Assembly: GCF_001579945.1 (NCBI RefSeq) | Contig: NZ_CP011971.1 | Span: 1,328,001 to 1,392,000, forward strand | DNA: 64,000 nucleotides | Source of the DNA: Steroidobacter denitrificans | GTDB taxonomy: Bacteria; Pseudomonadota; Gammaproteobacteria; Steroidobacterales; Steroidobacteraceae | Reading direction: 5' to 3' | In this document: positions 35,104 through 54,314 of the stretch, piece by piece | Layout of the letters: each line of letters begins with the position of its first letter | Numbering within the stretch: position 1 is the stretch's first letter | The notes under the pieces: generated by a model | The model's input: only the letters and a program-made list of their open reading frames with translations | Database searches by the model: none | What the model was told of the DNA's origin: nothing | Translations under genes and position numbers: made by a program

Positions 35104-35189
35104 GGATGTCCCGCTCCCGCTCCCGCTCCTGGTCCTTGCCGGCCGTGCCGTCGGATCCATGGCCGGCAAGGACCAGGAGCGGGACATCC
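35104..35189. repeat. Long inverted repeat, copy with CCCGCT expansion
   Basis: The 3' arm GGCCGGCAAGGACCAGGAGC... ending GGGACATCC (35,161-35,189) is complementary to a 5' arm (35,104-35,144) that begins GGATGTCCCGCTCC and ends CCTTGCCGGCC, except that the 5' arm has two extra CGCTCC hexamers. The loop is 16 bases. The order GTCCCGC, TGGT, GCC, CGTGC in the 5' arm recalls the repeats at 42.5, 46.1 and 54.2 kb, so I treat it as a diverged family member. It lies in the divergent gap between the ZapB-like gene and the UPF0149 gene. Confidence 0.75.
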
Positions 35190-35259
35190 AAACCATGAGC
35201 AGAGCTCCATTTCATCGCCGGCAGGTACCGAAACCGGCCAGGTGCTAAAATAGCCGCAA

Positions 35260-35883
35260 ATGTTATCCGTTACTTTTCCCGAGATCGTTCGCGCCCTGGA
35301 GGAGCTGAGCTGCTCGTTGGCGCCGTCCGAAGGGCATGGCTATCTATGCGGCGTGCTGTGTACCCGCGCGCACTATCCGCTGGAATGCTGGCTGGAGGAG
35401 ATGATTCCGGAACACGAAGAACGGGTTCAGGCCGATCGGCAGGCGCTGGACCTGCTGTTCACCGATACCCGGCAGACGTTGCATAGCGGTTCGATGAGTT
35501 TCGACCTGCTGCTGCCGGACGATGATGCGCCGCTGCATACGCGTGTCGCGGCTCTGTCGCAGTGGTGCCAGGGATTCCTGTATGGATTCGGGACCGGCCA
35601 GCCGGTCGGACTGGAGGCGGTGTCCGCGGATGTGAGCGAGCTGTTGCGCGATCTCACTCAGATCGGCCGCGCGATCCTCGAGCTGGAGGAGGGCAATGAG
35701 GAAGAAGAATCGGCGTACGCCGAGATCGTGGAATACGTCCGGGTGGGTGTGCAGCTGATTTATGACGAGATCGATGTCGTGAGGGAAACGCCGGCCATGG
35801 CTCGGAACGAAGCCCGAAACGACGATGATATCCGGGAGCACGGCGAGCGCGACGCCGGACTGGACCCGTCCCAGATCCATTGA
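35260..35883 (+). CDS. UPF0149 (YgfB/YecA-like) protein
   Basis: This 207-residue helical protein is of the UPF0149 family. Recognisable are the HGYLCGVLCTRA segment near residue 26, the acidic middle DDDAPLHTRVAALSQWCQGFLYGFG (about 85-108) and LEEGNEEEESAYAEIVEYVRVGVQLIYDE. YgfB in Pseudomonas affects beta-lactam tolerance through a regulator; otherwise the family is uncharacterised. It is the first gene of the rightward pepP-ubiH-ubiI block, the E. coli order (ygfB-pepP-ubiH-ubiI). The C-terminal 30 residues are an acidic, disordered tail. Confidence 0.9.
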   Translation: MLSVTFPEIVRALEELSCSLAPSEGHGYLCGVLCTRAHYPLECWLEEMIPEHEERVQADRQALDLLFTDTRQTLHSGSMSFDLLLPDDDAPLHTRVAALSQWCQGFLYGFGTGQPVGLEAVSADVSELLRDLTQIGRAILELEEGNEEEESAYAEIVEYVRVGVQLIYDEIDVVRETPAMARNEARNDDDIREHGERDAGLDPSQIH

Positions 35884-36009
35884 CCGGATCCCTTGGCCAC
35901 TCCTGGCAAGCTGCCGGTTTCAGCCGTTTCGCCTGAGCTTTCGTAATGGTGTTTCGGCGCGATATTCTGCTCTCTCGACGATGTGCTGCGATGATGCACC
36001 GAAGGACCC

Positions 36010-37314
36010 ATGCATAAAGACGAGTTTGCCCGCCGCCGCCGGCAGTTGATGAAGATGATGGGCAAGGGCGGGATTGCGATCCTGCCCGCGGTGCCCGAGA
36101 AGACGCGTAACTCCGACGTGATCTATCGCTATCGGCCCGATAGCGATTTTTTCTATCTCACCGGGTTTTCCGAACCGGAGGCCGTCGCGGTGCTCGTTCC
36201 AGGACGTGCCCAGGCCGAGTATGTGTTGTTCGTGCGCGATCGCGATCCCTTGCGGGAGACCTGGGACGGCCGTCGTGCCGGTCCCGATGGCGCGACGCGC
36301 GACTACGGCGCCGATGACGCATTTCCGATCGGCGATATCGACGACATACTGCCCGGGCTCATGGAAAACCGCTCGCGTGTCTATTACACGATGGGCCTGC
36401 ACCAGGAATTCGACCATCGCGTCGTCGGCTGGGTGAATACGCTCAAGGCTCAATCTCGCACCGGCGCGCCGCCGCCGCAGGAATTCGTCGCCCTGGATCA
36501 CCTGTTACACGACATGCGCTTGTTCAAGTCCCGGGCGGAACTGCAGGCGATGCGCCAGTCGGCCAGTATCGCCGTCGCTGCACACCTTCGGGCCATGCGG
36601 TTTGTCCGTCCCGGCTGCAAGGAATATGAAGTGATGGCGGAAATGCTGCATGAATTCCAGCGCAACAATGCCGATATCGCCTACCATCCGATCGTCGGCG
36701 GCGGCGCCAACGCATGCATCCTTCACTACCACGAAAATACCGATATCCTGAAAGACGGTGATCTGCTGTTGATCGACGCCGGCTGTGAGTTCGATCTCTA
36801 TGCCTCGGACATTACCCGGACATTTCCGGTAAATGGGCGCTTCAAGCCGGAGCAGCGCGCCGTCTACGAGGTCGTACTGGAGGCGCAGCAGGCGGCGATC
36901 GCCCAGACCCGCCCCGGCAATCACTGGAACGAGCCGCACGATGCCGCGGTGCGGACCATCACTCAGGGGCTGGTGAAGCTTGGCATCCTCAAGGGCAGGG
37001 TGCCGGCGCTGATCAAGCAAGGAGCCTATCGCAAGTTCTTTATGCATCGTACCGGGCACTGGCTGGGAATGGATGTGCACGATGTGGGTGACTACAAGGT
37101 TGCCGAGCAGTGGCGGGTGCTGGAACCGGGCATGGCTTTGACCGTCGAGCCGGGTATCTACATCCCCGCCGGGATGCGTGGCGTCGCCAAGCGTTGGTGG
37201 AATATCGGTGTGCGTATCGAGGATGATGTCGTCGTCACCCGCGAGGGCAACGAAGTGTTGACCGCCGCGCTGGCGAAGGATCCGGATGATATCGAGCGAC
37301 TGATGAACGCATGA
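36010..37314 (+). CDS. pepP: Xaa-Pro aminopeptidase P
   Basis: This 434-residue cytosolic metalloaminopeptidase removes the first residue before proline. The N-terminal domain (YRYRPDSDFFYLTGFSEPEA) and the pita-bread catalytic domain are both present. Five metal ligands are visible: two Asp in LLIDAGCEFDLYASDITRTF, His in HRTGHWLGMDVHDVGDY, Glu in LTVEPGIYIP and Glu in GVRIEDDVVV. Its last bases overlap the ubiH start by 4, so they are coupled. Confidence 0.97.
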   Translation: MHKDEFARRRRQLMKMMGKGGIAILPAVPEKTRNSDVIYRYRPDSDFFYLTGFSEPEAVAVLVPGRAQAEYVLFVRDRDPLRETWDGRRAGPDGATRDYGADDAFPIGDIDDILPGLMENRSRVYYTMGLHQEFDHRVVGWVNTLKAQSRTGAPPPQEFVALDHLLHDMRLFKSRAELQAMRQSASIAVAAHLRAMRFVRPGCKEYEVMAEMLHEFQRNNADIAYHPIVGGGANACILHYHENTDILKDGDLLLIDAGCEFDLYASDITRTFPVNGRFKPEQRAVYEVVLEAQQAAIAQTRPGNHWNEPHDAAVRTITQGLVKLGILKGRVPALIKQGAYRKFFMHRTGHWLGMDVHDVGDYKVAEQWRVLEPGMALTVEPGIYIPAGMRGVAKRWWNIGVRIEDDVVVTREGNEVLTAALAKDPDDIERLMNA

Positions 37315-38627
37315 ATAAGCCAGATACAGTGGATATCGACACTGATATCGCCATCGCCGGAGGCGGCCTGGTGGGCGCCAGTTTGGCGCTGGCCTTGACC
37401 CGGCTGTCACTGAAAGTCGTATTGGTCGAAGCCAGTCCCGCGGGGAGCGCCGGTCAGCCGAGTTTCGATGAACGTACCACCGCCCTGTCGAACGGCAGTC
37501 GCAGAATTTTCGAGTCCTTGGGCGTGTGGCCGCTCATCGAGCGTGAGGCGGCGGCCATTCGTCATATCCACGTTTCCGATCAGGGCCGCTTCGGCTTTAC
37601 GCGCATCGATGCAGCCGAGCAGGGTGTGGATGCTCTGGGCTACGTGGTGGTCAACCGGATCATGGGCGCGGCAATGTGGCGCCGCCTCGAAGAAGAAGGC
37701 GTGAGAGTGATCGCGCCGGCGCGTGTGACCGGCATGTATCTACGGGATGGGCGGCAACACATCGAGTTCAGCACTTCCGAGGGGAGCGCTTCCGGCGGGG
37801 GAGTGATCCGGGCCGGACTGGCGGTGGCCGCCGATGGCGCACAGTCCACCTTGCGCCAATGTGCCGGTGTGGGCTCGAGCCGCCGGGACTATCAACAGGT
37901 TGCCTTGATCGCCAATGTTTTTGCACAGCGATTCCATGATCATGTCGCCTATGAGCGCTTTACTCCTGCCGGTCCGCTGGCGCTGTTGCCGATGCCGGAC
38001 GGACGGATGGGGCTGGTCTGGGTAGTCGATCCGGCACAGGCCGAGGCTATGGCTCGTCTGCCCGAACCGGCCTTCCTGGCGCAGTTGCAGGAGACGTTCG
38101 GCTTTCGCCTCGGACGCTTCGTGCGCGTAGGAGTCCGGCACCTGTATCCCTTGTCGCTGACTCGTTCCGATGAGCATGTGGCGCCGCGGCTGGCGATCGT
38201 CGGCAACGCCGCCCAGTCGCTGCATCCGATCGCCGGCCAGGGTTTCAACCTGGGCCTGCGCGATGCGGCCAGCCTGGCGGAGGTGCTTGCCGATGGGCGC
38301 GCACAATATGCAGAGCCGCGGTCCGCGCCCCATCCGGAGTCGTTGCTGCCCGATCCGGAGTCGTTGCTGTCCGGTTTCGATCCGGGCGATCGAGTGATGC
38401 TCGAACGCTATCGTGAATGGCGCCGCGCGGATCGCGCCAACATCATAAGGTTCACCGATGGCCTGGTGCGCCTGTCCACGCAGCCCTTCGGGCCGGTCAA
38501 GTTGCTGCGTAACGCAGGTATGCTGGCGTTGGATCTCATGCCGGCTGCCAAGAGCATGTTGTCCCGGCTGTCGCTGGGTGCAGCCGGCCGCGTCCCGAAG
38601 CTGGCCCGAGGTGCACCGTTGCGATGA
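37311..38627 (+). CDS. ubiH: 2-octaprenyl-6-methoxyphenol hydroxylase UbiH
   Basis: This 438-residue FAD monooxygenase of ubiquinone synthesis has the dinucleotide fold IAIAGGGLVGASLALALTR, the DG motif VAADGAQSTLR and the FAD-ribityl segment VGNAAQSLHPIAGQGFNLGLRDAASLAEVL. It hydroxylates the ring at C1 (by family). Between about residues 338 and 356 there is a 7-codon tandem duplication, read as PESLLPD/PESLLSG, with 21-base units at 38,332 and 38,353 in an outer loop. It overlaps both pepP and the next gene by 4 bases, as expected for the pepP-ubiH-ubiI operon. Confidence 0.93.
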   Translation: MNKPDTVDIDTDIAIAGGGLVGASLALALTRLSLKVVLVEASPAGSAGQPSFDERTTALSNGSRRIFESLGVWPLIEREAAAIRHIHVSDQGRFGFTRIDAAEQGVDALGYVVVNRIMGAAMWRRLEEEGVRVIAPARVTGMYLRDGRQHIEFSTSEGSASGGGVIRAGLAVAADGAQSTLRQCAGVGSSRRDYQQVALIANVFAQRFHDHVAYERFTPAGPLALLPMPDGRMGLVWVVDPAQAEAMARLPEPAFLAQLQETFGFRLGRFVRVGVRHLYPLSLTRSDEHVAPRLAIVGNAAQSLHPIAGQGFNLGLRDAASLAEVLADGRAQYAEPRSAPHPESLLPDPESLLSGFDPGDRVMLERYREWRRADRANIIRFTDGLVRLSTQPFGPVKLLRNAGMLALDLMPAAKSMLSRLSLGAAGRVPKLARGAPLR

Positions 38628-39889
38628 AGCGTCCCGACTTTCATATCGTCGTGATCGGCGGCGGCATGGTGGGCGCATGCGTCGCCGCCTTGTCGGCGGC
38701 GAATCCGCAACTGACCGGCCTGCGCATTGCAATGCTGGAAGCGCAGCCTCCCACAATGCCGCCGCCGCAAGACGGGAACGCCGAGATCGATCTGCGCGTA
38801 TCCGCGTTCTCGAGAGCCGCGGAGCGCATTCTGGGCTCGGTGGGTGCCTGGCCGCTGTTGCCGGCGCAGCATATATGCGCCTATGACGACATGGTCGTTT
38901 GGGATGCGCCGCGCCAGCCGGATGATCCGGGTGTCATCCGTTTCAGTGCCGGCGCCGTTGGCGAGCCTAATCTGGGTCATATCATCGAGAATCGGCGTGT
39001 ACAGTGGGCGTTATACGAGTGCGCGCCATTTCGCGAGCAAGTGACCCTGTTGCGCGCGGAGCTGACGGGACTGGAGTTCGACAACGAGCGGGCGGTGCTG
39101 AGCCTGGGAGACGGACGCCGGATCAGCGCGATGCTGGTGATCGGCAGCGATGGAGCCGCATCCCGCAGCCGGGCGTTGGCCGGCATCGAGACCCGCGGTC
39201 GGGAGTATGATCAACAGGCCTTCGTCACGCATGTGCGTACCGAGCGTGCGCATGGATATACAGCCTGGCAGCGGTTTCTGCCCGAGGGGCCTATCGCCTT
39301 CCTGCCGCTCGCCGATGGACGTAGTTCCATTGTCTGGACGACCCGGCCTGAACAGGCGCGCGAACTGGTGGGTTGTCCTGTCGAGGAGGTATCGCGCCAG
39401 ATCGGCGCCGCCATCGGTCATGTCCTGGGCGACGTTGAACTTGCCGGACCTCGGGGTGTGTTCCCGCTGCGGTTGCAACATGCGCGCGAATATTGCCGGG
39501 AGCGTTTTGTGCTGGTCGGCGACGCCGCGCACGCAATGCATCCGCTGGCGGGCCAGGGCGTCAATCTGGGCTTCATGGATTGTGCCGCGCTGGTGCAGAT
39601 CCTGGCTGATGCATTGTCGCGCGGGGCACGTGCCGAGGCGATCGCCGAACTTCGTGTGCTGCGCCGCTACGAGCGTTGGCGCAAGAGTGAGAACACCCTG
39701 GCGTTAGGGCTCATCGATACCTTGAATCGAGTGTTCAGTAACTCGCACCCGTTGTTGTCCACCGCCCGCCGTGCCGGACTTGCCGCGGTCGAGCACAGCG
39801 GCCTGACCAAGAGATTCTTCATGGGGCGGGCGCTGGGCATGCGCGGGGAGATTCCACGTATCGCCTCGCGTTCGGCAGGATGGTCGTGA
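38624..39889 (+). CDS. ubiI: UbiI/VisC-family ubiquinone hydroxylase
   Basis: This 421-residue FAD monooxygenase is paralogous to UbiH. It has FHIVVIGGGMVGACVAAL at the start, the DG motif VIGSDGAASRSRALAG and LVGDAAHAMHPLAGQGVNLGFMDCAALVQIL near the end. In E. coli the third gene after pepP is ubiI, the C5 hydroxylase; I assign it on order and family, though UbiF-like specificity cannot be excluded. Its ATG overlaps the ubiH stop by 4 bases. With coq7 at 19 kb, this window holds three ubiquinone ring hydroxylases. Confidence 0.88.
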   Translation: MKRPDFHIVVIGGGMVGACVAALSAANPQLTGLRIAMLEAQPPTMPPPQDGNAEIDLRVSAFSRAAERILGSVGAWPLLPAQHICAYDDMVVWDAPRQPDDPGVIRFSAGAVGEPNLGHIIENRRVQWALYECAPFREQVTLLRAELTGLEFDNERAVLSLGDGRRISAMLVIGSDGAASRSRALAGIETRGREYDQQAFVTHVRTERAHGYTAWQRFLPEGPIAFLPLADGRSSIVWTTRPEQARELVGCPVEEVSRQIGAAIGHVLGDVELAGPRGVFPLRLQHAREYCRERFVLVGDAAHAMHPLAGQGVNLGFMDCAALVQILADALSRGARAEAIAELRVLRRYERWRKSENTLALGLIDTLNRVFSNSHPLLSTARRAGLAAVEHSGLTKRFFMGRALGMRGEIPRIASRSAGWS

Positions 39890-39971
39890 GCCAACCCGCC
39901 GTCCTGCCGGAGTCTTCGCGGCATACCGGCCGCGAAGATGCGTCTGCATCGTGCCTTCCCGCGTCGTTCCC

Positions 39972-41498
39972 ATGAACAATCGTCACATCCATGTGCTCTC
40001 GGCGATCCTGGTGGCAGTCAGTCTGGCGCTGTTCACGTACAAGGCGCATGTTCTGGGTCTGCCGTTGCAACCGAAGCAGGAAACGCAGGTCTGGAATATC
40101 GAGGCGGCGATCAAATTCGAGCCCGGCCCTGCTGCCGTCAAGGCGACATTGCGCATTCCCGGACTGACGCCGGGGTATGCGATTCTGGATGAGAGTTTCG
40201 TGTCCCGCGGCTTCGGACTCACGACCCGCAGCGCCCCGGCGGGGCGCGAAGCTCAGTGGACCTTGCGCGAAGCCAAGGGATCCCAGGTCCTGTACTATCG
40301 TGCGCTCGTATACCGTGATGCCTCGCGCATCGCGGAAGATACGACGCCGGCATTTCCTGAGCAGCCGCTCATGGATGACGCTTCGCGGGCGGCCATGGAG
40401 GCGTTGATCGCCGAAGTGCGCCGCCAGTCGGCGGATGTGGCGAGCTTCACGACCGGACTGTTGCGCCATATCAACATGGCGGAGCGCGATCCGTACGTCG
40501 GCGTGTTCCTGCGCCGAACCAGCACTCCCGTGGAGCGCGCGCATCTGGCGACGGTGATACTGGCAGGCGCGCAGATTCCGGCCCGCCTCGCCCATGGCGT
40601 ACTTCTGCGCAGCGAGACCGGACAGGTCCGGGTCGAGTCGCTGCTGGAGGTGCACGACGGCGTACAGTGGCTGTATTTCAATCCGCAGTCGCTGGAGCAG
40701 GGGCTACCCAGGGATTTTCTGATCTGGTGGCGCGGCGACGATCCTATCGCGGATATCGACGGCGGTACGCTGCTGGATGTGACCTTGGCAGCTCAGCAGA
40801 ATCTACTGGATTCCATGCTGATCGCCGAACGGCGGGCCGAGCGATTGGGCTCGCATTCCATCGATTTTTCTCTCTTCTCCTTGCCCATTGCGACCCAGGC
40901 GGTATACGGCGTACTGCTCATGGTGCCGATCGGCGCGCTGGTGATCATGCTGCTGCGCAATTTCATCGGCATCAAGACCTTCGGCACCTTCATGCCGGTG
41001 CTGGTCGCGCTGGCATTCCGTGAGACCCGCCTGTTGTGGGGCATCGTGCTGTTCGCGGTCATCGTCTCTCTGGGACTGTTGATCCGCTTTTACCTGGAGA
41101 GGCTCAGACTGCTGCTGGTGCCGCGCCTGACCTGCGTACTGACGGTGGTCGTGTTGCTGATGGCGGGTATCAGCGTGCTGAGTCAGAAACTGGATATTCA
41201 ACCTGGACTGTCGATCGCACTGTTCCCGATGGTGATCATTTCGATGACGATCGAGCGCATGTCGATCGTCTGGGAGGAGCGCGGCGCCTCGGAGGCGATT
41301 CAGGAGGGTATCGGCAGCCTGATCGTCGCCGCGATCTCTTATGTAGTCATGGAGATCGCCTGGCTCAAGCACTTGATGTTCGTGTTTCCGGAACTTTTGT
41401 TGTTGGTCGTTGCGGCGACCTTGTTCGCCGGACGTTACACGGGATATCGGCTGCTCGAATTGCGGCGTTTCAGGGCCTTGCTGCCCCAGGGCGGCTGA
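39972..41498 (+). CDS. Inactive transglutaminase fused to seven-helix membrane domain (UUP1-type)
   Basis: This 508-residue protein has an N-terminal membrane anchor (HVLSAILVAVSLALFTY), a periplasmic domain of the inactive-transglutaminase kind (about residues 50-290) and a C-terminal block of about seven transmembrane helices (from AVYGVLLMVPIGALVIMLLR). Such fusions are known to be paired with an ATP-grasp ligase, exactly as here: the next gene starts within this gene's stop (TGATG). The pair is thought to form a peptide-tagging or cell-surface modification module. The start is weakly supported (no good ribosome site); an upstream GTG at 39,951 is possible. Confidence 0.85.
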   Translation: MNNRHIHVLSAILVAVSLALFTYKAHVLGLPLQPKQETQVWNIEAAIKFEPGPAAVKATLRIPGLTPGYAILDESFVSRGFGLTTRSAPAGREAQWTLREAKGSQVLYYRALVYRDASRIAEDTTPAFPEQPLMDDASRAAMEALIAEVRRQSADVASFTTGLLRHINMAERDPYVGVFLRRTSTPVERAHLATVILAGAQIPARLAHGVLLRSETGQVRVESLLEVHDGVQWLYFNPQSLEQGLPRDFLIWWRGDDPIADIDGGTLLDVTLAAQQNLLDSMLIAERRAERLGSHSIDFSLFSLPIATQAVYGVLLMVPIGALVIMLLRNFIGIKTFGTFMPVLVALAFRETRLLWGIVLFAVIVSLGLLIRFYLERLRLLLVPRLTCVLTVVVLLMAGISVLSQKLDIQPGLSIALFPMVIISMTIERMSIVWEERGASEAIQEGIGSLIVAAISYVVMEIAWLKHLMFVFPELLLLVVAATLFAGRYTGYRLLELRRFRALLPQGG

Positions 41499-42490
41499 TG
41501 ATGCTGGGGCGTTACCGCAGGCTTGCACGTGCAGGAGTGCTCGGCCTGAACAAGCGCAATGGCGACTATATCCTGCGTTTCAATCCGCGCCGCCTGTATC
41601 CGCTGGTCGACGACAAGCTGAAGACCAAGCACCTGGCCTTGAAGGCGGGCATCGCCGTACCCGAACTCTACGGCGTCATGGAAACCCAGCACGAGATCCG
41701 TCGGCTGCCCGAGATAGTACGCGATCACGCGGCATTCGCACTCAAGCCGGCACATGGCAGCGCGGGCGACGGTATCGTGGTGATCGCGGGGCGCAGCGGC
41801 TCCCGTTACCGCACCGTGGGGGGCACGCTGCTGGATGAGGACGCTCTCTCCCATCACCTCTCGAATGCGATCAACGGCCAGTTCAGCCTCGGCGGCGTGC
41901 CCGATGTCGTCATCGTGGAATACATGGTTCGCTTTTCCCCTTTGTTCGAACGTATCAGCTTCCAGGGCGTGCCCGATATAAGGGTCATCGTGTTTCGCGG
42001 CTTCCCGATCATGGCGATGGTGCGCCTGCCCACACGGGATTCACATGGCAAGGCGAATCTGCATCAAGGCGCGGTCGGCGCCGGAATCGATATCGCTACC
42101 GGCGTATCGCTCGACGGCGTGGTCGGTACGGAGGTCGTGACGCACCATCCCGATACCACGCACGTGATTTCCGGACTGCAGGTTCCGGATTGGGACGTGA
42201 TCCTGGATATCGCGGCAAGATGCTATGAGCTGACGGGGCTGGGCTACATCGGCGTCGACATCGTGCTGGATCGAGATCTAGGCCCGCTGGTGCTGGAACT
42301 GAACGCGCGCCCCGGTCTGGCAATCCAGATCGCCAATCGACAGGGTTTGTTGCGGCGCCTGCAGCTATGCGAGGCGAGAGCCGATTTCAGCGCGGCGCCT
42401 CAGGCACGTGTCGCCTTCGCAAAACAATGGTTTCAGCACCCGGTCGGGCCCATGATCGAAGCGGATGAAGTCGCCGCTGCGGTGGCCTAG
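41498..42490 (+). CDS. Alpha-L-glutamate ligase-like ATP-grasp protein (RimK-related)
   Basis: This 330-residue ATP-grasp enzyme is related to RimK, which adds glutamate residues to proteins. Features include RNGDYILRFNPRRLYPLVDDKLKTK, the ATP-binding KPAHGSAGDGIVVI and the metal-binding GYIGVDIVLDRDLGPLVLELNARPGL. Translation starts in a TGATG overlap with the preceding membrane-protein gene, so the two are produced together. By family (TIGR02291-type) it probably adds amino acids to a target protein or peptide. The third partner sometimes found, a RimB-like zinc protease, is not adjacent here. Confidence 0.85.
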   Translation: MMLGRYRRLARAGVLGLNKRNGDYILRFNPRRLYPLVDDKLKTKHLALKAGIAVPELYGVMETQHEIRRLPEIVRDHAAFALKPAHGSAGDGIVVIAGRSGSRYRTVGGTLLDEDALSHHLSNAINGQFSLGGVPDVVIVEYMVRFSPLFERISFQGVPDIRVIVFRGFPIMAMVRLPTRDSHGKANLHQGAVGAGIDIATGVSLDGVVGTEVVTHHPDTTHVISGLQVPDWDVILDIAARCYELTGLGYIGVDIVLDRDLGPLVLELNARPGLAIQIANRQGLLRRLQLCEARADFSAAPQARVAFAKQWFQHPVGPMIEADEVAAAVA

Positions 42491-42537
42491 AAACCCCGTT
42501 CCGACCACTATTCAGGGCCAACGGCTATTGGCGGTGT

Positions 42538-42613
42538 GCCGGTCCCGCCCAGGGTTTCCATTGCCATGCATTTGTCTTGATGCATGGCAATGGAAACCCT
42601 GGGCGGGACCGGC
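42538..42613. repeat. Perfect 33-bp inverted repeat
   Basis: The arms 42,538-42,570 and 42,581-42,613 are exact reverse complements (33 bp) with the 10-base loop TTTGTCTTGA. It starts GCCGGTCCCGCCC and contains GGTTTCCATTGCCATGCA. It lies in the 190-base gap between the convergent ATP-grasp and phhB genes. The loop and flanking TGCA read on the minus strand as TGCATCAAGACAAATGCA, almost identical to the copies at 46.1 and 54.2 kb. Confidence 0.95.
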
Positions 42614-42680
42614 GAGTTTCCTGATGATTTTCGCAGACGGCCGAGGCGGTGGGTCTTGGAGGGCTATGCGGTGCTGAGGT

Positions 42681-44311: not shown

Positions 44312-44452
44312 GGCGGGGGACGATCCGGAAGCCTCGAGAAGGGAAAGACAGGCATTGTACCGCGCCTGCCCGACTCGGGTGCAGGGAGCGCAAAAGAGCA
44401 TCCGCGCCCGATGGATCCCGGATATGGGAGGTGCCCGTGAAACGATGGACCA

Positions 44453-44480
44453 TTGTGTTTCCTATCCGCTCGGCTACCAT
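44453..44480 (+). promoter_or_regulatory. Candidate promoter of the glycine riboswitch/gcv operon
   Basis: TTGTGT (44,453-44,458) and TACCAT (44,475-44,480) are separated by 16 bases. They end about 23 bases before the first aptamer, so transcription would start just upstream of the riboswitch. This is a pattern match only. Confidence 0.45.
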
Positions 44481-44502
44481 AGCCGAACCCATCGTCAGAC
44501 AC

Positions 44503-44800
44503 GGCCGGAGAGAGTGTCGCCGACGGGGCCGGATCGAGCGCTGCGGCGCGCTGTCCGGCCTTTGTCTGGTTCGACACCGCCGAAGGCGCAACCGCCCGGA
44601 AACGCTCAGGCAAAAGAACGGCATGTCGTTGGGGCGATTCGTCATGAATCGCCGCTCGAAGGGCTCTGGAGAGTAGTCGTGACGGTAACGCCAGGCGTTT
44701 CGTCGCGCTCACCGAAGGGGAGAGGCGAGGACCGGCCGGCATATGCCGTACGGTTCACGCCGGATCTCTCAGGTCGAAGGACAGAGGGCGGCGGATCGCG
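44503..44800 (+). promoter_or_regulatory. Tandem glycine riboswitch upstream of gcvT
   Basis: Two glycine aptamers lie head-to-tail. The first (about 44,503-44,626) has GGCCGGAGAGAG, CGCCGAAGGCGCAACCGC and the closing ACGCTCAGGCAAAAGAAC. The second (about 44,657-44,800) has CTCTGGAGAG, CACCGAAGGGGAGA and ATCTCTCAGGTCGAAGGACAGAGG. These are the conserved glycine-aptamer strings, in the usual order. Glycine binding should turn on the downstream glycine cleavage genes. The short space before the gcvT start (about 60 bases) suggests control of translation or early termination; no strong terminator stem is obvious. Confidence 0.92.
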
Positions 44801-45944: not shown

Positions 45945-46074
45945 TCGCCCTGGCATGAACGACTTCAAGCCATGCCTTTCGGTCCCGCAAAATGCCTCTC
46001 GGGACGCCGGGGCAGCGTTCTTCAACATCTCCGCTCTCGAGGCTTCTCACGGCAAACAATCACAGGGGTCCGCA

Positions 46075-46144
46075 GGTCCCGCCCATGGTTTCCCCTGCCG
46101 TGCATCAAGAGAAATGCACGGCAGGGGAAACCATGGGCGGGGCC
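46075..46144. repeat. 31-bp near-perfect inverted repeat between gcvT and gcvH
   Basis: The arms 46,075-46,105 and 46,114-46,144 pair over 31 positions with one G-T wobble and an 8-base loop CAAGAGAA. It begins GGTCCCGCCCATGGTTTCCC and shares loop and core with the 54.2 kb copy. It lies within the glycine cleavage operon, about 110 bases before gcvH, and would form a very stable hairpin in the gcv mRNA. Confidence 0.93.
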
Positions 46145-46255
46145 TGAAGCTGCCAAGGCTCGTGAATCCTCCAGGTCGGTTTCTGAGCCGGTTTCTCCGG
46201 ATTGGTTTTCCGATCTTCCTGACATCCCAATAGTTTCAAACCAGCAGGTCAGTCC

Positions 46256-46651: not shown

Positions 46652-46652
46652 T

Positions 46653-48011
46653 ATGCCGTTCATCCCGCATACACCGTCCGATGTCAGCGAGATGTTGGCG
46701 GCGATCGGCGCGCCGGATATCGACGCGCTGTTCGACGAGATTCCCGCCGCTCTGCGTACCCCGCCCCCGGAAAACCTTCCGCAAGGTCTGACCGAGATGC
46801 AAATCACGCGTCTGATGCATGCGCGTGCGCAGCTCGATGGACAGCCGCTCAACTTCCTGGGTGCCGGAGCCTACGAACACCATATTCCTGCAGCGGTGTG
46901 GGCGATCGTTTCGCGCGGTGAATTCTACAGCGCCTACACGCCCTACCAGGCGGAGGCGAGCCAGGGCACCCTCCAGGTCCTGTATGAATTCCAGACCATG
47001 ATGGCGAATCTCACCGGGATGCAGGTATCCAATGCATCCTTGTACGATGGTGCATCGGCGCTTGCGGAAGCCTGCCTGATGGCGGTGCGCGCCCACCGCC
47101 AATCCCGCTCGGCGCGCATCCTGGTGCCGGCCACAGTGCATCCGGACTATCGCCATGTGGCACGGGCGATCACCACGGGACAGTCCTTGAAGTTCGATGT
47201 TCTGCCGTATGGGGAAGAGGCGGGCACGCTGGACTTATCGTCCCTGGAGCGCTACAGCGGCCAGGACATCACCGCGGTCGTTGTACAGCATCCGAATTTT
47301 TTCGGGCTGCTGGAGGATGTCGATGCGATCACCGATTGGGCCCATGCCCAGGGGGCGATGTTGATCGCCGTCGTCAATCCCGTGTCGCTCGCGATCTTCA
47401 AGCCGCCGGGGGAGTGGGGCGAAAAAGGCGCGGATATCGTCGTGGGTGAAGGTCAGCCGCTGGGCGCGCCCCTGGCTTCGGGCGGACCTTACTTCGGTTT
47501 CATGACGACCCGTATGGAATATGTGCGCCAGATGCCCGGGCGTCTCATCGGGCGCACGCTCGACCTGGACGGCAAGCCCGGCTTTTCGTTGACTTTGCAG
47601 GCGCGCGAACAGCATATCCGGCGCAGCAAGGCGACCTCGAACATTTGTACGAATCAGGGGCTGCTGGTGACAGCGGCGGCGATACATCTGTCGCTGCTGG
47701 GGGCCACGGGCCTGGAGAGTGTGGCGGCAGCCTGCCAGGCGAATACCTCGGCATTGGTCGAGGCGTTGACCGGTATCGATGGCGTCAGGCTTCGCTTCGC
47801 CGGCCCGCGCTTCCATGAAGCCGTTCTGCAACTCGATCGCCAGGTCGATGGTGTGCTGCAGGAACTGGCCCGGCGCAATATCGCCGGCGGCTTGGATTTA
47901 TCCAGGCATTTTCCCGGATTGGGCAACGCACTGCTGGTGTGCGCCACCGAAACACGCACGCCCGAGGATATCCGGACCTATGCGCACGTCCTCGCCGAGA
48001 TCCTGACATGA
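46653..48011 (+). CDS. gcvPA: Glycine dehydrogenase (decarboxylating) subunit 1
   Basis: This 452-residue N-terminal half of the two-subunit P protein starts [35 protein letters not shown]. Segments [39 protein letters not shown] and [15 protein letters not shown] are typical. With GcvPB it decarboxylates glycine. The start lies directly at the gcvH stop, and its own stop overlaps the gcvPB start (ATGA), ensuring balanced synthesis. In E. coli the two halves are one protein. Confidence 0.97.
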
Positions 48012-49501
48012 GCGCCATGCATGAACCGCTGATTTTCACCTACTCCCGCCCGGGCCGCGGCGCGCCTGCGCAGTATCCACCCCCCGTACCCCCCGAGGTG
48101 CCGGAGAAGTTTCGGCGCCGGCGGCGCGTGGTGCTGCCGGAAGTCTCGGAACTGCAGGCCGTGCGGCATTTCACCCGGCTGTCGCAGTTGAACTTCTCGA
48201 TCGACACCCACTTCTATCCGCTGGGTTCGTGCACCATGAAGTACAACCCGCGCGCCTGCAACGAACTGGCGATGCTACCGCAAATGCTGGGCCGCCATCC
48301 GCTGGCACCTGAGTCGCTCAGCCAGGGTTTTCTCGCCTGCATGCATGAACTGCAGGAAATGCTCAAGGAAGTGACCGGCATGCAGGGCGTGTCGCTTACG
48401 CCCATGGCGGGCGCGCAGGGCGAGTTTGCCGGGGTGGCGATGATCCGGGCCTACCATCAGGCGCGCGGCGATACGGCACGCGAGGAGATCATCGTGCCCG
48501 ATGCGGCGCATGGAACGAATCCGGCGACCGCGACCATGTGCGGTTGCAAGGTGATCGAGGTACGCACCCTTGAGAACGGCGATATCGATATCGAGGCGCT
48601 GAAACAGGTGGTGGGACCGAAGACGGCGGGCATCATGCTGACGAATCCCTCAACCGTGGGCGTGTTCGAACGCCGCATCCAGGAGGTCGCGAGCCTGGTA
48701 CATGGAGCAGGCGGTCTGCTGTATTACGACGGCGCCAATCTGAATGCCATCCTCGGCAAGGTGCGCCCGGGCGACATGGGTTTCGACGTGATTCACATGA
48801 ATCTGCACAAGACTTTTTCGACGCCGCACGGCGGCGGCGGACCGGGCTCGGGGGCGGTGGGCGTCGGACGGCGCCTGTTGCCGTTCATGCCGGTTCCATT
48901 CGTGGAACGCGAGGAAGTATCCGCCGGGCATGCGCAACTGCGCTATCGGTATCGGTGGATGGATGAGCGCGACCTACCTCAGACGATCGGCAGGCTGTCC
49001 GCCTTCATGGGCAATGCCGGCGTGCTGCTGCGGGCCTATGTATACATGCGCATGCTGGGCCGTGCGGGTCTGGAGCGGGTGGCCGAGTATGCGACGCTCA
49101 ACGCCAACTATTTGCTGGCGCGCCTGCAGCAGGCAGGCTTCGAGCCGGCCTATCCGCAACGCCGCGCCAGCCATGAATTCATCATCACCATGAAGCGCCA
49201 GGCGAGGGAACTGGGCGTGAATGCCATGGACTTCGCCAAGCGGCTGCTGGATTACGGCTTCCATGCGCCGACGACCTATTTTCCATTGCTGGTGCCGGAG
49301 TGCCTCCTGATCGAACCGACGGAGACGGAGTCGAAACAGGAACTGGATGCCTTCGTGGATGCCTTGATCGCGATTCAGCGGGAAGCGCAGCAGGATGCCG
49401 CGAAGGTGAAGGGCGCGCCGTATACTTTGCCGGTGCGGCGTCTGGATGACGTCCGCGCCGCAAAGCAGTTGGATCTGGCGTATCGGGAGGATCCCGGCTG
49501 A
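48008..49501 (+). CDS. gcvPB: Glycine dehydrogenase (decarboxylating) subunit 2
   Basis: This 497-residue C-terminal half of the split P protein carries the PLP lysine Lys268 in [31 protein letters not shown] and [13 protein letters not shown] are conserved. It starts at 48,008 in a 4-base overlap with gcvPA. The end EADLDRRFVDALI-like tail ([19 protein letters not shown]) is normal. gcvL (lipoamide dehydrogenase) is not in this cluster, as usual. Confidence 0.97.
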
Positions 49502-49560
49502 GATCGTTCATGATCGCGTCCTTGGAGGGCGATCCCGGACGGTCGACTCAAGAGGTAAAG

Positions 49561-49926
49561 ATGCAGGATCGTCCCAAGCGCTCGGGCATGTATCGCCTAC
49601 GGCTCGCGTTCATCAATTCCTGGCAGGGGTTCAAGGGCGCCTTTCGCTTCGAGGCGGCGTTCCGGCAGGAGGTGGCGCTTGCACTGGTGCTGATTCCTCT
49701 GGGCGCCTGGCTGGGTTCGACGCCGGTCGAAAAAGCCTTGCTGATCGCCGCGGTGTTGCTGGTGCTGATCGTGGAACTGCTCAACACGGGCATCGAGACG
49801 GTGGTGGACCGCATCGGCCTGGAGCGCCATGAACTTTCGGGACTGGCGAAGGACGTGGGTTCCATGGCGGTACTGCTATCTTTCGCCGTACTGATGGTGA
49901 TCTGGGGCTTTTTGTTGCTGGGCTGA
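49561..49926 (+). CDS. dgkA: Diacylglycerol kinase
   Basis: This 121-residue trimeric integral-membrane kinase recycles diacylglycerol to phosphatidic acid. Start at 49,561 (MQDRPKRSGMYRLRLAFINSWQG) has a GAGGT site. The family motif EAAFRQEVALA in the N-terminal region, three transmembrane helices and the catalytic ELLNTGIETVVDRIGLERHELSGLAKDVGSMAV segment are all present. Confidence 0.95.
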   Translation: MQDRPKRSGMYRLRLAFINSWQGFKGAFRFEAAFRQEVALALVLIPLGAWLGSTPVEKALLIAAVLLVLIVELLNTGIETVVDRIGLERHELSGLAKDVGSMAVLLSFAVLMVIWGFLLLG

Positions 49927-50003
49927 CATGCCGTACAAGGGTGGCGGAGGAACCGTTGTGCATTTTCCGGCTCCTATCGTTGGATCGTTTGCAGCTTCCT
50001 TGC

Positions 50004-52961
50004 ATGTATAGAACCCTCATCGTCTTCGCTCACGCCGTCATCGTGGCCGCCACGCTGGCGGCAGTGCCGTCCCGCGCCGCCGCGCCCGACATTTCGGCGC
50101 CGCCGCAGGATGCCGTGCCAGCCGCGCCGGTGCCGGTACCCGAGGATTCACGCTGGACGCGTACCCTGGAGCGGGTCGCCACGGGCGTCGTGACCATACA
50201 GGTCGATCTGGCGCGTGCCTTCGACACCGAATGGAACATTTCCAGCCAGGCGACGGGATTCGTCGTGGATGCCCGCCGCGGGTTGATTCTCACCAATCGC
50301 CATGTCGTCACGCCCGGTCCGGTAACGGCGCAGGCGGTGTTCCTGAACCGCGAGGAAGTGACGCTTTATCCGGTCTATCGCGATCCGATCCATGATTTCG
50401 GCTTCTATCGCTATGATCCTGCCAAGCTGCGGTTCATCAAACCGGCGGAGCTGAAACTGTATCCGCAAGGTGCGCAGGTCGGCCGGGAAATCCGCGTCAT
50501 CGGCAACGATGCCGGTGAGCAGCTGTCGATACTTGCCGGTACCCTGGCCCGGCTCGACCGGCAGGCGCCGAACTATGGAGTGGGCAAGTACAACGACTTC
50601 AACACGTTCTACTACCAGGCCGCCTCCAGCACCTCCGGCGGTTCCTCCGGATCGCCGGTCATCGACATCGAAGGCCGGGTGCTGGCGCTCAATGCCGGCG
50701 GCAGCAGCGCGGCGGCTTCCAGCTTCTATCTACCGCTGGATCGTGTACAGCGCGCGCTGCAGCTGATTCAGGAAGGTAAGCCCGTCGCCCGCGGGACTTT
50801 GCAGACGATATTCCGGTACACCCCTTTCGACGAGGTGCGTCGCCTGGGGCTGCAAACGGCCACGGAAAGCGCGATGCGCCGCAGCTTTCCGGACAAGACA
50901 GGCATGCTGGTGGTCGCGGAAGTGCAACCTGGAGCGGCAGCCGAGCAGATGCTGGAGCCGGGCGACGTCCTGATTCGTGTCAACAGCAGGCTGAGCGCCG
51001 ACTTCGATGCCTTGGCCAGGGCGCTGGACGGCGCGATCGGACAGCGCATCAGACTGTCGATCGAACGCGGCGGACAGGCCTTCGAGCGTGATATCGTCGT
51101 TCAGGATCTGCATGCAATCACGCCCGATCGCTTTCTGGAATTCGGCGATGCCGTCGTGCACGACCTGTCCTGGCAGCAGGCGCGGCACATCAACAAGCCG
51201 ATCCGCGGCATTTATGTTGCCAATCCCGGCTATGTGCTGGCGGCGGCGGGAATCACCCGCGGGGCCATCCTGACCTCCATCAATGGACGGGACATCGGCG
51301 GTCTCGATGAACTCGAACCGCTATTGCAGAGACTCCAGGACGGCGAGCGTGCCGCGGTGCGCTTTTTCACCCTGGAGGAGCCCAATACCACCCAGGTGCG
51401 CGTGATCCGCATGGATCGGCGCTGGTTTCCCGCGCGTTCCTGCCGGCGTGACGACGCGCGCGGCACCTGGCCCTGCGTGAGTTGGGCGCCGGATGGGCAG
51501 GCGCAGCTGCCGCAGACCGCCACGACGAGTTTCGCGAAAACAGCCGATGCGATCGTGGATCGCGTCGCACCCTCGCTGGTGCTGGTGAATTTCGACATGC
51601 CATATTCGGTATCGGGCATCAGCGAGCGGAATTACCATGGTACGGGCCTGATCGTCGATGCGCAGCGCGGCCTGGTCGTGATCGACCGCAACACGGTGCC
51701 TATCCCGCTGGGAGATGTGCGCGTGACCTTCGCGGGATCGATCGAAATTCCCGGACGTGTGAAGTACATACATCCGCTGCACAACCTGGCCGTGATTTCC
51801 TACGATCCCCGCCTGATCGGCGCTACCCCGGTGCGCGCGGCGCGCCTGCGCCCCGAGGAATTGAGCCCGGGCGAACCGGTCTGGGTGGTGGGCATGCGTC
51901 AGGACGGAAAGGTGCTGTCACGCTCGACCCAGGTCGCGTCGATCGATCCCGTGTTGTATCCGTTGACCAGGACGCTGCGATTTCGCGAAACCAACCTGGA
52001 GACCGTCAGCCTGGTCAATGCACCCGGCGATTATGACGGCGTATTGGTGAACAAGAACGGCGAGGTGCTCGCGGGTTGGGCGAGTTTCGCCTACGAAGCC
52101 GGCCGCGACCTTCGGCAGGAGAATCGCGGTATTCCGGCGGAGCTGCTGGCGCAGACCTTGTCGCTGGCGCGCGAAGGCAGCCCGTTGTACTCGCTGGAGG
52201 CTGAACTGCGGCCCGTGCCGCTGGCCAGTGCCCGCAAGCTTGGCTTGTCGGATCGGTGGGTGCGGCGTCTGGAACGGCACAGTCCCGGGCGGCGGCAGGT
52301 GCTGAGCATCGAACGACTGGTCGGCGGTTCGCCCGCCAGCGGTCTGCTGTTGCCGGGCGATCTGATCCTGGAGGTCGAAGGTGCGCTGGTCAACCGCTTC
52401 AGCGAGCTCGAGCAGGTCGTCCAGGAACGTGGCCGGAACCCGGCGGTGCATGTTGCCGGCCATCCGGATCCGCTGGAAACGCCGCCGGATAAGACTCAGG
52501 TTGAGGATGGGCGGGCGCCGATCGTGCGTGTGACCGTGCTGCGCAACGGAGCGCAGCAGACGTTCCAGGTCCCTACGGTCGCCCTGGCGGGAGGCGATCT
52601 GGACCGCATCCTGGTATGGGCGGGGGCCGTTTTGCAGAAGCCCCACCGTGCGCTGGCTGCGCAGCGCGGCATCGCCCCCGAAGGGGTATTCGTTTCGTAC
52701 TTTTCCTTCGGTTCGCCTGCGGCGCGCTACAAGCTGTGGGCCGGCCGCCGTATCGTGGAAGTCGATGGGCAGTTCGTGGCCGACCTGGACGCATTCATCG
52801 CCGCGTTGCAAGGCAAGGACGATCGGGCGTCGCTGCGGCTCAAGACCGTCGCCTGGAACGGTGCCGTCGATGTCATCACACTGCAGCTGGACAAGCGTTA
52901 CTGGCCTACTTACGAGTTGCAGGCAACCCCGCAGGGTTGGATGCGCGTGCCGTTGGATTGA
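50004..52961 (+). CDS. Double-HtrA/PDZ serine protease resembling yeast Nma111
   Basis: This 985-residue protein starts with a signal peptide (MYRTLIVFAHAVIVAATLAA...SRAAA), so it acts in the periplasm. A first trypsin-like domain has the full triad His100 (LTNRHVV), Asp131 (PIHDFGF) and Ser215 (GGSSGSP), then PDZ domains. The stretch ITPDRFLEFGDAVVHDLSWQ and RVIRMDRRWFP recalls the fungal Nma111/Ynm3 proteins (about 997 residues). A second protease-like domain (from about residue 515) has lost all three catalytic residues: Asn at the His position (VIDRNTV), Asn at the Asp position (PLHNLAV) and Asp at the Ser position (PGDYDGV). Two further PDZ-like regions follow. Function is unknown in bacteria; a periplasmic quality-control role is an inference. 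Confidence 0.88.
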   Translation: MYRTLIVFAHAVIVAATLAAVPSRAAAPDISAPPQDAVPAAPVPVPEDSRWTRTLERVATGVVTIQVDLARAFDTEWNISSQATGFVVDARRGLILTNRHVVTPGPVTAQAVFLNREEVTLYPVYRDPIHDFGFYRYDPAKLRFIKPAELKLYPQGAQVGREIRVIGNDAGEQLSILAGTLARLDRQAPNYGVGKYNDFNTFYYQAASSTSGGSSGSPVIDIEGRVLALNAGGSSAAASSFYLPLDRVQRALQLIQEGKPVARGTLQTIFRYTPFDEVRRLGLQTATESAMRRSFPDKTGMLVVAEVQPGAAAEQMLEPGDVLIRVNSRLSADFDALARALDGAIGQRIRLSIERGGQAFERDIVVQDLHAITPDRFLEFGDAVVHDLSWQQARHINKPIRGIYVANPGYVLAAAGITRGAILTSINGRDIGGLDELEPLLQRLQDGERAAVRFFTLEEPNTTQVRVIRMDRRWFPARSCRRDDARGTWPCVSWAPDGQAQLPQTATTSFAKTADAIVDRVAPSLVLVNFDMPYSVSGISERNYHGTGLIVDAQRGLVVIDRNTVPIPLGDVRVTFAGSIEIPGRVKYIHPLHNLAVISYDPRLIGATPVRAARLRPEELSPGEPVWVVGMRQDGKVLSRSTQVASIDPVLYPLTRTLRFRETNLETVSLVNAPGDYDGVLVNKNGEVLAGWASFAYEAGRDLRQENRGIPAELLAQTLSLAREGSPLYSLEAELRPVPLASARKLGLSDRWVRRLERHSPGRRQVLSIERLVGGSPASGLLLPGDLILEVEGALVNRFSELEQVVQERGRNPAVHVAGHPDPLETPPDKTQVEDGRAPIVRVTVLRNGAQQTFQVPTVALAGGDLDRILVWAGAVLQKPHRALAAQRGIAPEGVFVSYFSFGSPAARYKLWAGRRIVEVDGQFVADLDAFIAALQGKDDRASLRLKTVAWNGAVDVITLQLDKRYWPTYELQATPQGWMRVPLD

Positions 52962-53115
52962 GACGGCCGCGCGGCCCGTTTACAGGGGGCCATCGTCTTT
53001 TGGTGGCGGCGGATGGCGGATATCCGCCGTCGCACCGACGAATTTCATGGAATTGTGATCGTACCGAGGGTGTTACAGCGATTCGCCCGGGCCGGCTTGT
53101 TATGATGCATGTCCT

Positions 53116-54159
53116 ATGGCCATCGCACGAGTATCGCAAAAGGATATCCAGCATGCCGTCGAAGTCTTGCGCGCCGGTGAGCTTGTGGCGTTTCCGACGG
53201 AAACCGTCTATGGATTAGGCGCCAATGCGAATAATCCGGAAGCGGTGCGCAAGATTTTCCGCGTCAAAGGACGGCCTGCCACGCATCCGGTCATCGTCCA
53301 TGTGGATCATCCGCGCTATCTGCAGCGTTGGGTGCGCGACATGTCGCCGGAAGCCAAGAAGCTGGCGGATGCGTTCTGGCCGGGGCCGCTGACATTGGTG
53401 GCGAAGCGCGCACCGGCAGTCAGTGACGTCATCACCGGCGGGCAGGATACGGTTGCGATCCGTGTACCGAATCATCCGGTAGCGCAGCAGCTGCTCAACG
53501 CCTTCGGCGGGGGGATCGCCGCGCCGTCTGCGAATCGCTACGGTCACGTGAGCCCGACCCGCGCCGAACATGTGCGTGAGGAATTCGGCGACGACATCGG
53601 GGTTGTGCTGGATGGCGGGGATTGCAAGGTAGGGCTGGAATCCACGATCGTCACCTGTGTGGGCGATGTGCCGCGCGTATTGCGGCCAGGCAGCATCAGC
53701 ATATCGCAGCTGCGCGAGATCGTGCCGACGGTCGAGATGGGACCGGGGGCCGGCGTACCGCGCGTTCCAGGCTCGACTCTGCGGCACTACTCGCCACAGA
53801 CTCCCGTCAATGTCGTACCCAGCCGCCGGCTCGAACAGGTCATGAACGAGTTCACCAGTCGCCATGAGAAAGTGGCCGTGCTGGCGCTGCGCCCCCCCGC
53901 CACGGCCAATCGCTATATGACCTGGATCAATGCCGGCATGCGTAGCGATTTGTATGCGCGATCGCTCTATGCCCATCTGCGCACCTTGGACAAGGCCGGC
54001 GCGAAAATCATTCTGGTCGAGGAAGTACCGGAAGGTGAGAAATGGGATGCCGTGCGCGACCGGCTGAGGCGTGCCGCGACGGCCGAGAACATCGTGACCT
54101 ACGATCAGGATATCGCGGCGTGGGTGGCTGATTTCGGCGAGGATGGCGCACCCACCTGA
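53116..54159 (+). CDS. L-threonylcarbamoyladenylate synthase, Sua5 type
   Basis: This 347-residue enzyme makes threonylcarbamoyl-AMP for t6A modification of tRNA position 37. The N-terminal YrdC domain (residues about 10-200) has FPTETVYGLGANA, KGRPATHPVIVHV and the KLADAFWPGPLTLV core. A C-terminal Sua5 domain (about 235-345) is present, unlike the short TsaC of E. coli (190 residues). It is transcribed alone after the large protease. Confidence 0.95.
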   Translation: MAIARVSQKDIQHAVEVLRAGELVAFPTETVYGLGANANNPEAVRKIFRVKGRPATHPVIVHVDHPRYLQRWVRDMSPEAKKLADAFWPGPLTLVAKRAPAVSDVITGGQDTVAIRVPNHPVAQQLLNAFGGGIAAPSANRYGHVSPTRAEHVREEFGDDIGVVLDGGDCKVGLESTIVTCVGDVPRVLRPGSISISQLREIVPTVEMGPGAGVPRVPGSTLRHYSPQTPVNVVPSRRLEQVMNEFTSRHEKVAVLALRPPATANRYMTWINAGMRSDLYARSLYAHLRTLDKAGAKIILVEEVPEGEKWDAVRDRLRRAATAENIVTYDQDIAAWVADFGEDGAPT

Positions 54160-54237
54160 CCCCGCGCAACCCGACGCCGGCATCGGCAGAGACTGGGATC
54201 AAGACAAGCTTTATCGTGTTTCCAAAGGATCGTGGAG

Positions 54238-54314
54238 GCGCTCCCGCCCATGGCTTCCATCAACCGTGCATCAAGAGAAATGCACGGTTGATGGAAGCCA
54301 TGGGCGGGGAGCGC
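54238..54314. repeat. 34/35-base near-perfect inverted repeat after the Sua5 gene
   Basis: The arms 54,238-54,271 and 54,280-54,314 pair over 34 bp with one extra C-G in the 3' arm; the loop is CAAGAGAA. It begins GCGCTCCCGCCCATGGCTTC. Loop and core match the 46.1 kb copy exactly while the outer and middle arm bases differ, yet remain paired. Confidence 0.93.

What the first reader, a model, noticed from the sequence alone, without database searches (positions are those of the whole stretch)
35104..54314. A dispersed family of long, nearly perfect inverted repeats with a conserved loop and co-varying arms
Copies at 42,538-42,613 (33/33 bp), 46,075-46,144 (31 bp, one wobble) and 54,238-54,314 (34 bp, one bulge) share the loop TGCATCAAGA(G/C)AAATGCA (one copy inverted) and the CCCGCCCA-GG-TTCC core. 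The arm middles differ completely (CCCTGCCG, CATCAACCG, CATTGCCATG) but remain complementary. The 35.1 kb copy is a diverged member with a hexamer expansion in only one arm. Co-variation implies either selection for the hairpin or gene conversion between arms. They lack the GTAG boxes of REP elements and no transposase is nearby.
Basis: seen in the sequence. Interest (0 to 1): 0.8.

Follow-up and report, generated by a model that had tools for sequence, protein, structure and literature searches.

The report
Dispersed hairpin repeats with self-matching arms
This bacterium carries about fifty short hairpin-shaped DNA repeats whose two arms differ widely from copy to copy yet nearly always match each other, which suggests that one arm is used as the template to rewrite the other.

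Summary
The four window hairpins belong to one family with 52 copies in the 3.47 Mb genome. The family shares an outer core (about TCCCGC[T/C]CATGG), an inner GCC[A/G]TG and related loops. Arm middles differ between copies (mean cross-copy complementarity 52%) but match within a copy (94%); 29 of 30 stem pairs show changes on both sides. The family was found in none of 59 relatives, 13 of them congeners.

The evidence favours DNA-level arm copying over RNA selection. One-sided changes in transcription-oriented copies are 16 G·U and 17 A·C. Pairing also runs, copy by copy, past the conserved core (permutation 0 of 2000).

The elements look like REPINs: mostly intergenic, near stop codons, with half-elements and local tandem copies; one sits in frame in a protease gene. 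They fail REPIN/REP membership: no general GTAG tag, no REP-like fold in a single arm, and no arms beside any of three RAYT-like genes. No target duplication was found.

Verdict: a species-restricted (as far as tested), REPIN-like palindromic repeat family, probably homogenised by template switching. The mobiliser is unknown.

The parts
35104..35189 (.). Family member (genome 1363114-1363191). Stem 35121-35184, 27 bp, one G·T; outer arms 35104-35123/35170-35189 pair if two extra CCCGCT-type hexamers in the left arm bulge out. Lies between divergently transcribed predicted genes.
42538..42613 (-). Family member (genome 1370536-1370615). 34-bp perfect stem, loop TTGTCTTG (CAAGACAA on the minus strand). 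Lies between convergent predicted genes.
46073..46146 (+). Family member (genome 1374070-1374149). 33-bp stem, one T·G, loop CAAGAGAA. Lies between gcvT and gcvH (same direction; spacing 311 bp here; roughly 20-130 bp by eye in the four congener loci where it can be read).
   Evidence: gene names by reading the ORFs
54238..54314 (+). Family member (genome 1382235-1382316). 35-column stem with one bulged G, loop CAAGAGAA. Lies 3' of a Sua5/YrdC-like gene and upstream of a separate hairpin plus T-run terminator-like site near 54,369-54,398.
   Evidence: gene name and terminator-like site read by eye

Best explanation
The hairpins are one family of miniature palindromic repeats of about 76-80 bp, found only in this species as far as tested: outer core TCCCGC[T/C]CATGG, variable middle, inner GCC[A/G]TG, a loop of 3-20 nt, then the reverse complement. 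Shown: 52 copies, shared ends, covariation along the stem, mostly intergenic position, half-elements, no arms beside the RAYT-like genes. [quoted passage not shown] This turns a mutation in one arm into a paired change, sometimes overruns into the flank, and can invert the loop. Inferred more weakly: the family spread as a REPIN-like non-autonomous element moved in trans by an HUH (Y1) transposase that recognises the conserved ends, or by one since lost. Any effect on mRNA (3' stability, RNase III cleavage) would be a by-product.
For: 52 distinct copies in the own genome with R2; 41 already with R1 from four copies. Mean within-copy complementarity 94% against 52% between copies, highest of 2652 cross-copy values 0.917. 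29 of 30 pairs with two-sided changes, 583 double-change cells against 156+/-19 shuffled, and loss of signal when slid by 1-3 columns (that alignment holds both strands of each palindrome and is model-fitted). G·U 16, A·C 17, other 12 among codirectional copies read in the transcribed direction. Pairing past the core fades over about six positions and is copy-specific: 10 of 52 copies with >=4 extra consecutive pairs against 1.4% between copies, permutation 0 of 2000. Half-elements and tandem modules beside hairpins fit replication errors there. A 165-bp in-frame insertion in an Rce1-like gene, absent from ten congener homologues, shows insertion into existing DNA. Literature: REPIN stems with common compensatory changes (PMC3116915, passages); template switching creates and maintains stems (PMC8794818, abstract and start of introduction) and inverts spacers (PMC8604942, abstract).
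Against: No mobiliser identified. Three RAYT-like genes exist but no arms lie near them, and 11 of the 12 congeners searched have RAYT-like matches (G004 fragments only) without having the hairpins. No target duplication. Template switching is inferred from pattern only; no ancestor-descendant pair caught the event. The best-related pair (1119064/2657537) has 4 and 0 mismatches, so correction is not complete. Outer-arm pairing could partly reflect a longer ancestral arm. Oriented mismatch counts are small (33 G·U or A·C cells). Intergenic position near stop codons would also suit an RNA role.
Confidence: 0.6

Rival explanations
1. True REPINs: palindromic REP doublets mobilised by one of the genome's three RAYT-like transposases, with stem diversity as in Pseudomonas REPINs.
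For: Same layout: conserved inverted ends, variable stem, about 76-80 bp, intergenic, single-arm remnants and tandem clusters. Compensatory stem changes are reported for REPINs (PMC3116915). One gene exceeds NCBI's REP_Tyr_transpos cut-off (87.1 against 80) and a second is just below (77.1). GTAG/CTAC at the ends is above the flank control.
Against: No arms within the fetched stretches (about 2-4 kb either side) of the three RAYT-like genes. GTAG/CTAC in at most 8 of 104 end windows, and single arms do not fold alone (1 of 52 with z<-2). RAYT-like matches occur in 11 of 12 congeners searched, none of which has the hairpins.
Confidence: 0.25
2. RNA-level elements: 3'-UTR hairpins kept by selection for RNA structure, for example mRNA stabilisers or RNase III processing sites.
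For: Close to stop codons: median 64 bp to the upstream stop against 134 bp to the downstream start, 18 of 26 nearer the stop. 15 convergent against 7 divergent placements. One copy lies inside the gcv gene cluster.
Against: No G·U preference (16 against 17) and no clear loop orientation relative to transcription (15 with, 10 against, 5 undecided). 0 of 104 ends have a T-run, so these are not intrinsic terminators. A 30-bp stem should not need near-perfect pairing to work (general knowledge). 7 copies lie between divergent genes. No Rfam family reaches its gathering score over the hairpins tested.
Confidence: 0.1
3. MITE of a conventional DDE insertion sequence: two long terminal inverted repeats with almost no interior, derived from several related ISs.
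For: Terminal inverted repeats with conserved ends; in-frame insertion into a gene.
Against: No excess of 4-7 bp direct repeats just outside the stems (15 of 52 against 17.5 expected at 4 bp; 0 of 52 against 1.2 at 6 bp). The arm model shows no pair of arms around a larger element; the three isolated arm-like hits are single. Independent MITEs would not be expected to keep arms matched while copies diverge.
Confidence: 0.1

Closest known systems
REPINs (REP doublets forming hairpins; Bertels and Rainey 2011, PMC3116915)
   Same: Conserved inverted ends around a diverse but complementary stem, similar size (71-bp spacing in GI), extragenic, singlet remnants, ordered tandem clusters, compensatory changes reported as common
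   Different: No REP sub-palindrome or general GTAG tag, arms matched along nearly the whole length, no RAYT found with the same ends beside it, about 50 copies, one species as far as tested
GTAG- and CGTC-tagged REP families (Di Nocera et al. 2013, PMC3733652)
   Same: Small palindromes, mostly between codirectional and convergent genes, 3' of genes, some inside genes; CGTC families likewise lack a dedicated transposase
   Different: Those units are 20-40 bp (CGTC stems 8-9 bp) with an unpaired tag; here stems of 24-36 columns in 48 of 52 copies and no tag as a family feature
Quasi-palindrome correction / template-switch mutagenesis (PMC8794818, PMC8604942)
   Same: Arm homogenisation, perfect stems, spacer inversion
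   Different: Described there as a mutational process in RNA genes and yeast genes; here the pattern appears across a dispersed bacterial repeat family
Rickettsia palindromic elements
   Same: Palindromic repeat inserted in frame in a coding gene (one clear copy here)
   Different: Sequences were not compared; here one clear case in 52, the rest mainly intergenic. This comparison is mostly recalled; only a search listing was seen

Membership tests
REPIN | Two conserved inverted ends forming a hairpin with a variable spacer/stem | tested here: met
   52 copies, conserved outer core, 94% mean within-copy complementarity
REPIN | Mainly extragenic | tested here: met
   46 of 52 without predicted ORF overlap by a simple home-made ORF caller; 6 overlaps, of which one is a clear in-gene copy
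REPIN | REP sequence at each end: short palindrome with GTAG-type tag | tested here: not met
   GTAG or CTAC in at most 8 of 104 end windows (flank control 5 of 312, so above control but not general); single-arm fold mean z 0.23, 1 of 52 below -2
REPIN | Cognate RAYT flanked by the same ends | tested here: not met
   Three RAYT-like genes found, no arm match at E up to 10 in their stretches
MITE of a DDE transposon | Target-site duplication | tested here: not met
   No excess of 4-7 bp direct repeats in the 14 nt on each side of the stem
MITE of a DDE transposon | Autonomous element with the same ends | tested here: inconclusive
   Arm model R3 on the own genome gave no pair of distant facing arms, but only 150 of 3486 first-look candidates were scored
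Intrinsic terminator | T-run after the stem | tested here: not met
   0 of 104 ends
Quasi-palindrome template-switch product | Arm homogenisation without dependence on RNA wobble or on the transcribed strand | tested here: met
   G·U 16 against A·C 17; copy-specific overrun past the core
Quasi-palindrome template-switch product | Observed conversion of an imperfect to a perfect stem in a lineage | not testable with these tools
   No second strain of the species was available
Rfam RNA families | Match at the family's gathering score | tested here: not met
   None over any of the four window hairpins; in 8 loci searched by E-value only sub-threshold miRNA models over hairpins. The other copies were not searched.

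The most novel reading that the evidence does not exclude
A self-completing palindrome: the heritable and spreading unit is a half-element (one arm plus loop), and the second arm is written by fold-back replication at each new site. Every copy is then born or re-made perfect whatever its arm sequence, and the family can grow locally without a dedicated transposase. The 1803 kb locus, with two half-element modules followed by the same half completed by its own complementary arm, is what this predicts.
Probability: 0.17. Interest if true: 0.72.

Novelty: new variant of a known kind. Interest (0 to 1): 0.47.

Why it matters
Co-variation between stem arms is usually read as proof of a selected RNA structure. 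This family shows strong covariation, 29 of 30 stem pairs, without a sign of selection on RNA (no wobble bias, no clear strand preference). It could serve as a natural control for covariation methods and as a system to measure template-switch correction in a bacterium. It also adds a REPIN-like family with no identified transposase, a situation already noted for CGTC REPs (PMC3733652).

Tried and rejected
Considered and rejected: intrinsic terminators (no T-run); known RNA family; DDE MITE with target duplication. Virus- or plasmid-borne element: the pattern scan of viral contigs gave 0 hits (same gap limit); one copy (122.7 kb) by blastn gave 0 hits in phages and one weak 75% hit in plasmids, in Embleya, with no annotated feature; its DNA was printed and not taken further.

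Led nowhere: the genome contigs pattern scan returned 30 stretches; folded, none looks like a full-arm family hairpin by inspection. Two (L081 Rhodospirillales, L087 Reyranella) carry outer arms a few bases longer than the pattern demands but a different interior; they were not followed. The pattern's gap (42-60) excludes the short-loop copies: only 9 of the 39 own-genome stretches tested match it (two of these cover the same copy), so this scan is weak evidence of absence. The order and class scans (own genome only, among 396 and 369) scored only 11-12 candidates per genome; the 60-genome scan scored up to 78, with stricter filters. The organism's name was not obtained.

Limits: gene context rests on a simple codon-usage ORF caller trained on 22 window ORFs, not a standard gene finder. 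Gene names in the window (gcvT, gcvH, Sua5-like) are read by eye and were not searched against a family library. The loop-orientation labels come from a hand-written motif list and leave 7 of 52 undecided. A target duplication hidden inside the outer stem extension would be missed. Just outside the fading zone, within-copy pairing is below the between-copy level (0.17-0.21 against 0.27-0.28 at three positions), as expected at a stem end.
Full report
Observation. With exact stems they are 35,121-35,184 (27 bp, one G·T), 42,538-42,613 (34 bp, perfect), 46,073-46,146 (33 bp, one T·G) and 54,238-54,314 (35 columns, one bulge). The same filter found no hairpin with >=17-bp arms in 244.5 kb of congener G013 or 200 kb of G003, and six of other sequence types in 200 kb of G008, so these four in 64 kb are not chance.

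Copy number and range. The loop pattern with up to two mismatches hits nine places in the own genome and none for the reversed control. A covariance model from four copies (R1) found 41 distinct hairpins. A model from both strands of those (R2) found 52; the 104 strand matches are the two strands of 52 places. Among 60 genomes (own plus 59 relatives, 13 of them same genus) only the own genome matches. Wider scans of 396 order-level and 369 class-level genomes, own included, also give only the own genome, but scored only 11-12 candidates each. A public-genome pattern scan gave 30 stretches, none a family hairpin by inspection, but its gap limits exclude the short-loop copies. The family is therefore species-restricted as far as tested. 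Congeners are not close: GcvH is 69-77% identical in the ten congeners searched.

Anatomy. Arms read outer GTCCCGC[T/C]CATGG, a variable middle, inner GCC[A/G]TG. Loops are 3-20 nt and stems 24-36 columns in 48 of 52 copies, longer in four through weak outer extension. Loops seem to form a series from TGCATCAAGAGAAATGCA to GCCTTCGGATTCAC, in both orientations, judged by eye. In the innermost 30 columns 1422 of 1512 are Watson-Crick; 15 of 52 copies have no departure there, 31 have at most one, the worst has seven.

Covariation. Taking the 24 bases nearest the loop, a copy's own arms are 94% complementary on average, arms of different copies 52%; the highest of 2652 cross-copy values is 0.917. 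On the model-fitted alignment (86 rows, both strands, 78 distinct), 29 of 30 pairs change on both sides, 583 cells against 156+/-19 in shuffles, and the score collapses when partners slide by one to three columns. That alignment leans to its structure, so the within/between test is the cleaner one.

RNA or DNA. If RNA structure were selected, one-sided changes should be G·U when read in the transcribed direction. Among the 30 copies between codirectional genes they are 16 G·U, 17 A·C and 12 other; over all copies on the plus strand 30, 30 and 19. The loop points with transcription in 15, against it in 10 and is undecided in 5 of those 30 copies. Of 1559 Watson-Crick to Watson-Crick pair differences, 559 are transversions, which one G·U step cannot give. 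Pairing runs past the conserved core and fades over about six positions; it is copy-specific (10 of 52 with four or more extra consecutive pairs, 1.4% between copies; permutation 0 of 2000). An arm-copying process that overruns predicts this; selection on an already 30-bp stem does not readily. No T-runs follow the stems (0 of 104 ends), and the copy at 54.3 kb lies upstream of a separate terminator-like hairpin (by eye).

Surroundings. By a simple ORF caller 46 of 52 copies overlap no predicted gene; 30 lie between codirectional, 15 between convergent and 7 between divergent genes; in 26 non-overlapping codirectional cases the median distance is 64 bp to the upstream stop and 134 bp to the downstream start, 18 of 26 being nearer the stop. 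One copy (713470-713547) lies in frame in a gene matching Pfam Rce1-like. Eleven congeners match this protein; in ten the match spans the site and lacks a 55-residue stretch there, the eleventh (G005) is a fragment that does not span it. About 165 bp therefore entered this lineage: the hairpin plus roughly 40 and 50 bp of unconserved flank. The 1160929 copy overlaps the 3' end of an AI-2E transporter gene and the 273109 copy the 3' end of an aminopeptidase gene. The other three predicted overlaps were not examined.

Half-elements and local repeats. A sequence-only arm model (150 of 3486 candidates scored) found 14 extra arms within 250 bp of a full hairpin, all 14 pointing the same way as the near arm of that hairpin; several come from the same tandem array and are not independent. 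Three further arm-like hits are isolated. Start-to-start spacing is often near one element length: 81 and 81 (1803 kb), 83 (951 kb), 78 (3194 kb), 79 and 80 (2429 kb), 74 (378 kb, a loop-plus-arm copy seen), and 79 by arm positions at 679 kb. It is not so elsewhere: about 62-70 at 122, 245 and 273 kb, and 36-41 at 729 and 1455 kb (from positions). At 1803 kb two modules hold one arm, the loop and an unrelated spacer of about 36-41 nt, and the third has the same half followed by its own complementary arm. At 122.7 kb a hairpin is nested between two 33-nt half-elements that are complementary to each other. These fit replication errors at hairpins, but the module length and the origin of the spacers are not explained.

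Mobiliser. Three RAYT-like genes exist: two by Pfam Y1_Tnp (REP_Tyr_transpos 87.1 and 77.1 bits against a cut-off of 80) and a third by similarity. No arm of the family lies in the stretches fetched around them, and 11 of 12 congeners searched (G001-G012; G004 fragments only) have matches to the first of these proteins but none has the hairpins. No direct target duplication was found.

Literature. [quoted passage not shown] GTAG and CGTC REPs are described with short units; CGTC types lack a dedicated transposase (PMC3733652, abstract and sections 6 and 16). Template switching is reported to create and fix stems (PMC8794818, abstract and start of introduction) and to homogenise arms and invert spacers (PMC8604942, abstract). 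Searches for related terms listed no paper that, by title and start of abstract, describes this family; for the other listed papers only those listings were seen.

Verdict. A real, REPIN-like palindromic family of 52 detected copies, restricted to this species as far as tested, whose arm covariation is best explained by DNA copying between arms. It should not be filed as REPIN, because two defining features were tested and not met.

Noticed in passing
window 44495-44794 (+): Two Glycine riboswitch aptamers in tandem upstream of the gcvT-like gene.
   Followed up: no
window 34002-34188 (-): 6S RNA gene about 1 kb from the 35.1 kb hairpin.
   Followed up: no
L034:980-2020 (-): Rce1-like protease gene with a 55-residue in-frame insertion carrying a family hairpin; ten congener homologues lack it.
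   Followed up: yes
L170:1997-2239: Three 81-nt tandem modules; the first two hold a half-element, the third a complete hairpin.
   Followed up: partly
L032:1400-1600: Hairpin nested between two mutually complementary 33-nt half-elements of the same family.
   Followed up: partly
L136, L138, L139 (congener G008): Different palindromic repeats (CCCGCGAAAGCGGGA type and TGTGGGTCCGGCT type) in a congener.
   Followed up: no
L137:9885-9962 (congener G008): 33-bp inverted repeat built of GGTTGGC-type tandem units on both arms.
   Followed up: no
L181:2042-2965 (+): Third RAYT-like gene, not listed by the Pfam Y1_Tnp search, found by 34% identity to the first.
   Followed up: partly
L010:1462-2343 (+): RAYT-like protein with a C-terminal stretch resembling the DnaA C-terminal helix-turn-helix (29.9 bits against a cut-off of 31.5).
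   Followed up: no
L081 and L087: Palindromes in a Rhodospirillales MAG and Reyranella soli with outer arms like CCCGCTCATGAT but a different interior.
   Followed up: no
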